DNA of 64,000 nucleotides from Blepharisma japonicum (taxonomy: Eukaryota > Ciliophora > Heterotrichea > Heterotrichida > Blepharismidae). Positions 225 to 3,074 of this stretch are shown here, piece after piece. The translations under genes and the position numbers were made by a program. The notes below the pieces were generated by a model. The model ran no database searches. It was not told where the DNA came from and was given only the letters and a program-made list of their open reading frames with translations. The stretch spans positions 62,001-126,000 of the forward strand of contig CATKHK010000009.1 in NCBI GenBank assembly GCA_949751835.1, in the 5' to 3' direction. Every line of letters starts with the position of its first letter. Position 1 is the stretch's first letter.

Positions 225-2267
225 ATGAATATGGAGCCCATCTCAGAACAAATAAAGAAATTGCTTGAAGAGGGTGGACAAGGCATAATTGAAATGCACC
301 CAGAACGTCATAATCTTACCTCAATAATCTCTTTGATTACTCTCTATAAAAAACCAGCACAGCTTGGGAAAGTTATAATTTGTCCTAAAAATATTGAAGA
401 AGTGGATGAAATACTCAAAAGACTTAAAAATATAAATTTTGATGGTCTTGCGTTTGGAATTTTACACAAGAAGGGTTTATGTCTTAACAATGAAGTAAAC
501 TCAAAAGAAAGAATTGAAGTCGAATCAGAGTGCCTAGAGCTCTGCAATGCCAGTCAAGGCTGCAGCTACTATGAAAATTTCAAAGAAAAGCCAAATTTCT
601 TTATTAATGGTGTTTTAACAAGCAAAGACTTAAAAGATATGTGCGAACTCGCTGGAATCTGCCCTTATTTTCTACAAAAGCGCGCTTTATCTCAAGCAGA
701 AGTTATTGTTTGCACCCACCAATATTTCTTTCAGTCTGGATTTTCAGAACTAAAATCAATCCTTCAACAGAAAAATGCGATTTTATTTTTAGATTCCCAT
801 AATCTTGACTCCACAATATTAGACGAGTGCAGCATAAATTTGAATTTAAACTCGTTATCAGAATCTTTAGGAAACATAAAGGCTATTTTGCAGATTCTTG
901 AAACGACTTACCCAAATTTGAAGCAAAATTATTATAATGCTATGAAAAATGTAAATTCTAAATAGAACTTAAGATCTGCGAATTTTTTTGAAAGAAGTTT
1001 AATGCCTATTTCTGTTCCTGACAGCTTGATGGAGAGGACAGTCCCAGGCCAAATAAGAAAACCAGAATATTTTTTAGGATTTATTAAGAGAGTTGCAGTC
1101 CACTTAAGGAAGCTTTTAAGATCAAAAGAACCAAAAATATACTCAGGATCTAGAATGCTTTACGACTTAAAAGTTAACGCTCTCATTGAGCCGGACTGTT
1201 TGAAATTCGCGATTTTTTCGCTCCATGCTCTCTTTACACTGTTTCCTGACATTTTACCTAAAGAATACTACCCTCTCCAGCTACTCTGTAGATTTTGTAC
1301 AACTTTAGCAAACAGCTCTGAAGGTTTTATAATAGTTTTTGAGCCTCACCCAGAGTCTCAAAACATATACTCTCCTGTTTTACAATTAACTTGCCTGGAC
1401 GCTACATTTTGCTTATCTCCTATATTAAGCTCATTTTCCTCATCTTTATTTATAACAGCAACTTGCACCCCGCCTGAAATTTTTTCAAAATTATTAGGCC
1501 TTTCCCCAAGTTTTAAGGCGGAATTAAGCTGCACTTCCATATATTGCCCACTTATGCTGACAAAAGGATCCGATCAATTAGCAGTTTCTGCTAAAGAAGA
1601 AAAAAGTGACGAAGGAGTAATTAGAAATTACGGGGATTTATTATTAGAGCTAGCTGATACCATTCCTGACGGAATCATTTGTTTTGTGACTGGATATAAA
1701 TATTTAGAGGACATTGTGCTAAAATGGAATGAAACTGGCTTACTTTATAGGCTGTTAGACCATAAGCTAGTATTTTTCGAAAGTCGTGATATGAGAGAAA
1801 CACAAATAGCTTTATATAATTTCAAGCTTGCATGCTCTTCTGGAAGAGGGGCTATTTTATTTTGTGTTACAAATGGATATGCAGTTGATACCGTTAATAT
1901 TTTTTCAGCATGGTGCAAATGTGTGGTTATTTTTGGGGTTCCTTATCAAGATGTGCTGAGTAGAGTACTAAAAGCAAGACTTACATATATAAAAGAAAAA
2001 TATTCAATAGAAGAGAGTGAAATGCTTAATTTTGACTCAATGAGACAAACAGTTTATTGTATGAGCCAAGCATTAAGACCAAATAATAATTATGCTTTAC
2101 AAATTTTCGCAGATAAAAGATATGTTTATAGCCAAAAGAAAGATAAGCTTCCCAAATGGATCCAAGAGAAATTAAAGCCAAATTTTTCAAGTCTATCAAC
2201 AGATGTACTTATTAATATTTCAAGGCAATTTCTTAGAAGTGCAGCTAATAAAATTAATTTAAGGTAA
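225..2267 (+). CDS. XPD/Rad3-like protein with all helicase motifs degenerate
   Basis: 675-aa protein, exons 225-950 and 966-2267, joined across a 15-nt intron (gtaaattctaaatag) that removes an in-frame TAG. It aligns with XPD/ERCC2, the TFIIH 5'-3' helicase, over its whole length, including the C-terminal GVPY, LKARLTYI, FADKRY and LPKWIQE blocks. The catalytic residues are lost: Walker A is replaced by HPERHNLT (residues 25-32), DEAH by DSHN (190-193), and motif VI QxxGRxxR by YCMSQALR (606-613). The Fe-S cysteines look kept (C86, C103 or C107, C113, C146). No ATP hydrolysis is expected; a structural TFIIH-type role is inference. It is about 85 aa shorter than human XPD. The open frame and neat splicing argue against a recent pseudogene. 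Family assignment is firm, function open. Confidence 0.88.
951..965 (+). other. 15-nt intron in the XPD-like gene
   Basis: gtaaattctaaatag. It carries the only in-frame stop (TAG) between the two halves of the XPD-like frame, and removing it keeps the frame. GT-AG, 15 nt, the standard heterotrich miniature intron. Confidence 0.9.
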
Positions 2268-2315: not shown

Positions 2316-3074
2316 ATGAAAGAAGCTGCTCTCTGCGCAATTATTAAAGGCTTTGAACAATCCAAGAAGCTCTATAGCATTGACGAGCAAAAAATCAGAT
2401 CCTTAATCCAAAGTCTTGATTTCGACCATGAACCCTTTTTTATCAAAATCCGAGAGCTTATCTCCAATGTCGTCAACAAAGTAGGTGCTCAAAAAGCCTG
2501 CGAAACCTTCCACTTGCCTTCTTCTATGTCAGAACATTTTGCAAGCTCATCAAGCTCTTCAGAAAACGCTTCAGAGTCTGACCTTACCAAAGAAAAAAAG
2601 AAAATAGCTGTCAAAATGAGCATGAGTGGGAAAAACACTGCAGAAATAGCATTAAAGCTGGGCGTCAGAGAGACAATGATTCAGCAATGAATTAAAGCAG
2701 TTAAAAAACATATAGGGACCAAAAAGAGAAAAATCAATGAAAATGAAGAAATTAGAGGAGAAATGGACAGTGAGGGGAGCGATATGCCGTCAGATGAAGG
2801 GTCAAGTGATATGGACTCTTTTGAGGAATCAGACGAAGAAAAACCGAAAAAAGGAAAAATTGCAAAGAAAAAGCCAGAGAAAATGCCTGTGAAGAAAAAA
2901 GAGGAGAAGAAGGAGGAGAAAAAAGTTGAGAAAAAGCCTGAAAAAATAGAGAAAAAAGCTGAAGAGAAAAAGAATAATGATTTGAAAGCAGCAGCACTTA
3001 ATAGCCAGCTAAAAAATGCGGTGGCTAATTTGGATCCGTTTGATGACTTGTATCTTGAAGCGGCGCTCATTTAA
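2316..3074 (+). CDS. Hypothetical nuclear-looking protein, HTH-like core and Lys/Glu tail
   Basis: 252-aa protein read through one UGA-Trp (2688-2690). Residues 1-80 are helical and unrecognised, followed by a serine run. Residues 93-133 look like a homeodomain-like helix-turn-helix: a basic helix, then AEIALKLGVRET, then MIQQWIKAVKKHIG, where the UGA gives the Trp. The tail (about 145-225) is almost wholly Lys/Glu/Asp/Ser with Pro, typical of nuclear or nucleolar proteins. It follows the XPD-like gene by 48 bp in the same direction. No family was recognised; DNA binding is inference from the HTH pattern. Confidence 0.75.

What the first reader, a model, noticed from the sequence alone, without database searches (positions are those of the whole stretch)
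225..2267. Intact XPD paralogue with every helicase motif destroyed but the Fe-S domain kept
The full-length XPD fold is recognisable, yet Walker A, DEAH and motif VI are all replaced while the four Fe-S cysteines look conserved and the gene splices cleanly. TFIIH needs XPD mainly as structure for transcription (established), so a pseudo-XPD could be a dedicated transcription-only TFIIH subunit, leaving repair to a catalytic paralogue elsewhere. I know of no described family of this kind.
Basis: partly seen in the sequence, partly recalled or inferred. Interest (0 to 1): 0.8.

Follow-up and report, generated by a model that had tools for sequence, protein, structure and literature searches.

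The report
Ciliate's only XPD is a pseudohelicase
In this ciliate genome the single copy found of XPD, a motor protein that other eukaryotes use to repair DNA, has lost its engine but kept its body and key contact points for the gene-reading machine TFIIH, so it probably serves transcription only.

Summary

It is not a paralogue beside an active XPD. Searches of the 45-Mb assembly find it as the only XPD; the two other family members are DDX11/FANCJ-type helicases with intact motifs. XPB, p44 and MAT1 are present. No XPC was found, and the six XPG-family hits look like FEN1 or EXO1; but ERCC1 and an XPA-like protein exist.

Best reading: a transcription-only TFIIH scaffold in a lineage whose canonical excision repair is reduced or lost. 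Expression, dN/dS and other heterotrichs could not be tested.

The parts
225..950 (+). Exon 1 of the pseudo-XPD gene (residues 1-242): HD1 with degraded motifs I, Ia, II, plus the Fe-S domain
951..965 (+). 15-nt intron GTAAATTCTAAATAG; its in-frame TAG separates the two open frames
   Evidence: predominantly 15-16 bp introns reported for Blepharisma stoltei (PMC9942806, passages)
966..2267 (+). Exon 2 (residues 243-675 and TAA stop): rest of Arch domain and HD2
297..317 (+). Former Walker A (human P43-T49 PSGTGKT), now HPERHNL
480..482 (+). Fe-S ligand cysteine (human C116), kept
531..533 (+). Fe-S ligand cysteine (human C134), kept
561..563 (+). Fe-S ligand cysteine (human C155), kept
660..662 (+). 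Fe-S ligand cysteine (human C190), kept
789..800 (+). Former Walker B / DEAH box (human 234-237), now LDSH
1056..1058 (+). Arg equivalent to human R324 (MAT1 contact, needed for transcription), kept
   Evidence: PMC7125077 (section 9 read)
1086..1091 (+). Lys-Arg equivalent to human R334-R335 (MAT1 contact), KR as in yeast
   Evidence: PMC7125077
1455..1463 (+). Former motif III SGT (human 458-460), now TAT
1866..1901 (+). Former motif V (VARGKVSEGIDF), now VTNGYAVDTVNI
2055..2081 (+). Former motif VI (QCVGRAIRG), now YCMSQALRP; first arginine finger lost, second Arg kept
2235..2237 (+). Arg equivalent to human R722 (salt bridge to p44 D75), kept
   Evidence: PMC6422496 (passages)

Best explanation
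This is the organism's only XPD (ERCC2/Rad3) orthologue as far as the assembly shows. It has become a pseudohelicase: it cannot bind or hydrolyse ATP in the normal way, but still folds around its Fe-S cluster, docks on p44 through HD2 and its C-terminal helix, and holds MAT1 (hence the CDK7 kinase module) through the Arch domain. TFIIH here therefore works in transcription with XPB as its only motor, and the XPD-driven lesion-verification step of nucleotide excision repair is gone. Shown by sequence: sole orthologue in the assembly, loss of catalytic residues, kept scaffold, kept key contact residues, presence of XPB, p44 and MAT1. Inferred: lack of ATPase, incorporation into TFIIH, continued selection, and reduction or loss of canonical NER.
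Against: A predicted contrast failed: residues invariant across the whole helicase superfamily are kept as often (16 of 35) as XPD-only invariants (84 of 192), p 0.85, so loss concentrates in the motif cores rather than in all superfamily positions. Of 23 p44-interface residues only 9 are identical to human (8 of 14 invariant ones); R616, D673 and G675, where human disease changes weaken XPD or its p44 contact (PMC6422496, passages), read K, N and A. Fe-S DNA-contact residues Y158, F161, F193 are kept although transcription in vitro does not need them. An XPA-like protein and ERCC1 are present, so NER is not cleanly gone. The Arch domain is modelled poorly. No transcript, protein or dN/dS evidence. 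p62, p52, p34, p8, CDK7 and cyclin H were not searched. The neutral simulation has no indels or tree and starts from human XPD.
Confidence: 0.75

Rival explanations
1. The organism also has a catalytic XPD that the assembly lacks (gap, withheld stretch, or germline-limited copy), and the window gene is a dead paralogue.
For: The completeness of this genome is not given, any withheld stretch would read N, and search counts are lower bounds; ciliates can carry germline-limited genes (general knowledge).
Against: Three searches agree on three family members and one XPD, with every first-look candidate scored. XPB, p44, MAT1, ERCC1 and six XPG-family genes were found in the same assembly. A gene needed for growth should be in the macronuclear genome.
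Confidence: 0.1
2. Overlaps with the best explanation but differs on repair: the protein is in TFIIH and still binds single-stranded DNA through its Fe-S domain without ATP, acting as a passive clamp or sensor, with excision repair kept in altered form and unwinding done by XPB or by one of the two DDX11/FANCJ-type helicases.
For: Fe-S domain is the best-kept part (15 of 25 invariants), with Y158, F161 and F193 kept and R112, R196 changed only to K; XPA-like protein and ERCC1 present; two DDX11-like genes with intact motifs.
Against: No XPC and no XPG found; nothing links the DDX11-like proteins to TFIIH; Fe-S retention can be explained by stability (the ctC133S variant was the exception to clean purification, PMC4182028).
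Confidence: 0.2
3. The protein left TFIIH and took on another role (for example with the CAK module alone), TFIIH having lost XPD altogether.
For: Fast evolution: end branch 1.57 versus 0.21 for human XPD; only 9 of 23 p44-interface residues identical.
Against: R722 and its p44 partner D75, and the tested residues on both sides of the Arch/MAT1 contact, are kept or conservatively changed.
Confidence: 0.08
4. It is a decaying pseudogene.
For: Loss of motifs and of the N-terminus, elevated rate.
Against: 675 open codons and a typical 15-nt intron; neutral decay to this state left no run of 600 without stops; other XPD-invariant residues are kept about three times as often as catalytic ones; no other XPD was found to replace an essential subunit. 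For comparison, a DDX11-like relic in the same genome is scattered over two frames in four pieces.
Confidence: 0.03

Closest known systems
XPD/ERCC2/Rad3 of TFIIH (human, yeast, Chaetomium)
   Same: Orthologue: 224 of 672 aligned residues identical to human, same fold and domain order, four Fe-S cysteines, key p44 and MAT1 contact residues.
   Different: ATPase motifs I, II, V, VI lost, III, Ia and IV degraded, N-terminal Q-motif region missing.
Laboratory helicase-dead XPD (K48R, K370E)
   Same: Predicted to work like them: transcription without helicase (PMC4182028, PMC7125077; sections read). Position 370 is D here, 48 is N.
   Different: Those are point mutants; this is a naturally fixed state with nearly the whole active site replaced.
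Trypanosoma brucei XPD and XPB, reported to act only in transcription, with XPBz in repair
   Same: Functional precedent for a TFIIH devoted to transcription (PMC4138998, abstract and passages).
   Different: There the split was shown by RNAi; loss of XPD catalytic residues is not described in the passages I saw.
DDX11/FANCJ-type Fe-S helicases (two in this genome)
   Same: Same superfamily and Fe-S helicase fold.
   Different: Intact motifs; separate clade.
Paramecium TFIIH
   Same: Ciliate with clear XPD, XPB, p44 and p52 orthologues (PMC12716044, passages).
   Different: The passages do not say whether its XPD motifs are intact; the paper reports no other TFIIH subunits, whereas MAT1 is found here.

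Membership tests
XPD/ERCC2/Rad3 subunit of TFIIH (by descent) | Groups with XPD rather than DDX11, FANCJ, DinG or archaeal XPD | tested here: met
   100/100 clade with human, yeast and Chaetomium XPD; grouping with DDX11-like rejected; TIGR00604 rad3 354.6 bits, cut-off 247 (that model also takes in the DDX11-like proteins)
XPD/ERCC2/Rad3 subunit of TFIIH (by descent) | HD1, Fe-S, Arch, HD2 domain order and fold | tested here: met
XPD/ERCC2/Rad3 subunit of TFIIH (by descent) | Four Fe-S ligand cysteines | tested here: met
   C116, C134, C155, C190; the cluster itself is not shown
XPD/ERCC2/Rad3 subunit of TFIIH (by descent) | p44 and MAT1 contact residues | tested here: inconclusive
   R722, R592, R324, R335 identical, R334K, R616K, but p44 interface only 9 of 23 identical; partner residues kept; binding not tested
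XPD/ERCC2/Rad3 subunit of TFIIH (by descent) | Physically present in TFIIH | not testable with these tools
   needs purification or proteomics
XPD-type ATP-dependent DNA helicase (by activity) | SF2 ATPase motifs I, II, VI | tested here: not met
   HPERHNL, LDSH, YCMSQALR; so it is not filed as an XPD helicase
Pseudoenzyme kept by selection | Catalytic residues lost | tested here: met
   4 of 25 kept
Pseudoenzyme kept by selection | Purifying selection after inactivation | tested here: inconclusive
   Indirect: no stops and higher retention outside motifs, but the superfamily contrast failed; dN/dS not possible without heterotrich relatives
DDX11/FANCJ or DinG families | Tree placement with them | tested here: not met
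   no RTEL1 and no named DDX11 sequence was in the tree
Canonical NER gene set in this genome | XPC, XPG, XPA, ERCC1 present | tested here: inconclusive
   XPC not found (no positive control), XPG not found among six hits, XPA-like found over the Pfam cut-off but below the XPA/Rad14 family cut-off (43.5 versus 113 bits), ERCC1 found; XPF and CSB not searched

The most novel reading that the evidence does not exclude
A free-living eukaryote whose only XPD is ATPase-dead: evolution has carried out the separation-of-function experiment, turning TFIIH into a permanent transcription-only complex and dismantling canonical nucleotide excision repair (no XPC, no XPG, no XPD helicase), while keeping the XPD body as the bridge between core TFIIH and the CDK7 kinase module.
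Probability: 0.5. Interest if true: 0.87.

Novelty: new variant of a known kind. Interest (0 to 1): 0.76.

Why it matters
The evidence I read that XPD's ATPase is dispensable for transcription comes from in vitro reconstitution with point mutants. A lineage living with only a dead XPD would test it in vivo and over evolutionary time. It would also show which parts of XPD are pure scaffold, since the kept residues mark them, and would make directly testable how a free-living cell copes without a key NER helicase. In ten searches of the held open-access library, whose longer lists were cut at 10 to 20 rows, I saw no listing that describes a natural helicase-dead XPD; most subscription papers are not in that library.

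Tried and rejected
Rejected: pseudogene (no stops); member of DDX11, FANCJ or DinG; missed 5' exon with the Q motif (by eye over the upstream frames); motif hidden in another frame. Led nowhere: codon usage does not discriminate (correlation 0.89 in frame, but 0.92 for one reverse frame); the HBB model found nothing in this genome or in any control genome, so it says nothing; the XPC models also rang in no control genome, although the same tool found ERCC1 (39.8 bits), XPA_C (33.7 bits) and MAT1 (65.6 bits) here. A second XPA_C match at 13.3 bits (L108) and three weaker XPB-model matches (L011-L013) were not followed up. The finer placement beside human XPD is not to be trusted (holding human, yeast and Chaetomium together without the window protein is not rejected, p-AU 0.195). 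Heterotrich orthologues for dN/dS could not be obtained; the stated cap for the metagenome collection was 0 scans and I did not try it.

Rows dropped: of 80 loci, 17 archaeal and 6 DinG entered the tree, and 29 of the 77 full-length frames listed entered the structure alignment; L026 was left out of the latter for an unknown residue. Human FANCJ entered the tree as three joined printed stretches.

The p44/MAT1 membership row was lowered to inconclusive.

Full report
What is there. The window is G000:C9:62001-126000 of a 45.2-Mb, 224-contig genome. TGA lies in frame in neighbouring and homologous genes, as expected if it is read as tryptophan, and the intron is 15 nt. The window is 33% GC. These are the traits reported for the heterotrich ciliate Blepharisma stoltei: UGA as tryptophan, mostly 15-16 bp introns, 66% AT (PMC9942806, passages). 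Assembly size and contig number differ from that paper (41 Mb, 64 telomere-to-telomere sequences), so I call it Blepharisma-like and do not name the species. The gene runs from ATG 225 to the TAA ending at 2267 with one intron at 951-965, giving 675 aa. Upstream is about 400 bp in which I saw no XPD-like frame, and the next gene starts at 2316; further downstream are a PP2C phosphatase and an FtsJ methyltransferase, so the neighbourhood gives no functional clue.

The engine is gone. In human numbering: G47H, K48N, T49L, D234L, E235D, R601N, K603Y, S605V, E606D, G607T, D609N, Q662Y, G665S, R666Q. Of 25 core catalytic residues that I listed from general knowledge of SF2 motifs, after seeing the alignment, 4 remain (H237, T460, G602, R669); of the 301 other aligned positions invariant in human, yeast and Chaetomium XPD, 141 remain (Fisher p 0.003). 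With wider motif windows the counts are 18 of 62 and 127 of 264 (p 0.007). A second contrast did not come out as I expected: positions invariant across the superfamily are kept 16 of 35 times and XPD-only ones 84 of 192 (p 0.85). In a working helicase the first group should be almost fully kept, so the special constraint has gone, but the loss is concentrated in the motif cores, not in every superfamily position. Retention by domain: Fe-S 15 of 25, HD2 78 of 154, Arch 31 of 78, first half of HD1 15 of 40, second half of HD1 6 of 29.

It is not a neutral relic, as far as sequence can tell. A simple neutral simulation was run until catalytic retention fell to 5 of 25, or in a second set to 4 of 25. 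One search (200 runs) gave a mean of 31 stop codons, fewest 16, and kept on average 25% (at most 53%) of the other invariant positions. One search (300 runs at each cut-off) gave means of 31 and 33 stops, fewest 14, none with zero; 1 of 300 and 2 of 300 runs kept as much elsewhere as the 47% observed. The gene has no stop. The simulation is crude (no indels, uniform sites, human start). As a comparison from the same genome, a DDX11-like relic upstream of the C2 copy matches in four pieces over two frames. XPB of the same genome is 354 of 645 identical to human, this XPD 224 of 672, while human and yeast XPD are 396 of 749 identical, so XPD looks fast-evolving here, fitting relaxed constraint on part of it. 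Codon usage was uninformative.

It is the only XPD found. PF06733 and PF13307 each find the same three loci. A search with Chaetomium XPD at E <= 10 gives this gene at 336 bits and otherwise only the loci on C74 and C2, at most 88 bits. Those two encode proteins with intact GTGK, DEAH and QSIGRAIR strings that group with human FANCJ, 91/90, not with XPD. I recall their sequences as closest to DDX11/CHL1; no DDX11 sequence was in the tree.

The rest of TFIIH. XPB is present (355 bits to its C-terminal model) with Walker A and motif VI kept, DEVH reading DEVQ. p44 is present once, over the cut-offs of Ssl1 and of its C-terminal model TIGR00622. MAT1 is present over the Pfam cut-off, though as a 197-aa frame below the full-length NCBIfam cut-off. 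Contact residues: XPD R722, whose change to W breaks p44 binding and transcription (PMC4182028, sections read; PMC6422496, passages), is R, and its partner D75 in p44 is D. XPD R324, R334 and R335, needed for transcription through MAT1 (PMC7125077, section read), are R, K and R; MAT1 E71, R75, E86, D97 and E100 read E, R, E, E and E (read by eye). K370, where K370E keeps 84% transcription with 9% helicase, is D. Against this, only 9 of 23 residues of the published p44 interface are identical to human, and R616, D673 and G675 read K, N and A.

Repair genes. Two XPC models find nothing, one of them at E <= 10. The XPG_I model finds six genes. In PDB searches one of four FEN1-like genes scores FEN1 251 versus Rad2 97, and one of two EXO1-like genes scores EXO1 185 versus Rad2 50; the other four were assigned by similarity to these two, and all five of the six that were scanned score higher with the FEN model than with rad2 (L022 not scanned). 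ERCC1 is found. XPA_C hits one protein with a C-x2-C-x17-C-x2-C finger (my reading), 43.5 bits to the XPA/Rad14 model against a cut-off of 113, and a weak F-box-like N-terminus. So the canonical NER set looks depleted, but I cannot call NER absent.

How it most likely works. Human XPD K48R, without ATPase, supports basal transcription and fails in NER (PMC4182028, table and section). A protein without an ATP site but with p44 and MAT1 contacts should therefore behave as a scaffold that brings the CDK7 module to TFIIH, while XPB does the DNA work. The Fe-S domain is kept better than any other part, although the same paper finds it not vital for transcription in vitro (C134S 65%). I read this as folding stability, the ctC133S variant being the exception to clean purification; an alternative is residual ATP-independent DNA binding, since Y158, F161 and F193 are kept. 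The nearest precedent is Trypanosoma brucei, where XPD and XPB are reported to act only in transcription (PMC4138998, abstract and passages).

Novelty and scores. I found no listing of a natural helicase-dead XPD in ten library searches, which cover open-access papers only. I file it as a new variant of a known kind: XPD by descent, not an XPD helicase by activity. Interest 0.76; it is limited by one genome, no expression data and no dN/dS.

Noticed in passing
L107 (G000:C37:198678-198827): A protein that joins an F-box-like N-terminus (below cut-off) to an XPA-type zinc finger and XPA_C domain; possibly a re-purposed XPA.
   Followed up: partly
L010 (G000:C66:159987-160703): XPB keeps its Walker A and motif VI, but its DEVH box reads DEVQ.
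   Followed up: partly
L020-L025: Six XPG-family nucleases: four FEN1-like (L023 with an insert of roughly 100 residues) and two EXO1-like, but no XPG.
   Followed up: partly
L004 and L005 (G000:C74 and C2): Two DDX11/FANCJ-type Fe-S helicases, 56-58% identical to each other, both with intact motifs.
   Followed up: partly
L005:199-1758: A DDX11-like relic upstream of the C2 copy, matching in four pieces over two frames: what real decay looks like in this genome.
   Followed up: partly
window 2316-3074 (+): Next gene downstream has an in-frame TGA (2688-2690), a weak helix-turn-helix match below cut-off and a charged tail.
   Followed up: no
window 2681-3070 (-): A 129-aa open frame antisense to that charged tail, low in complexity and probably not a gene.
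   Followed up: no
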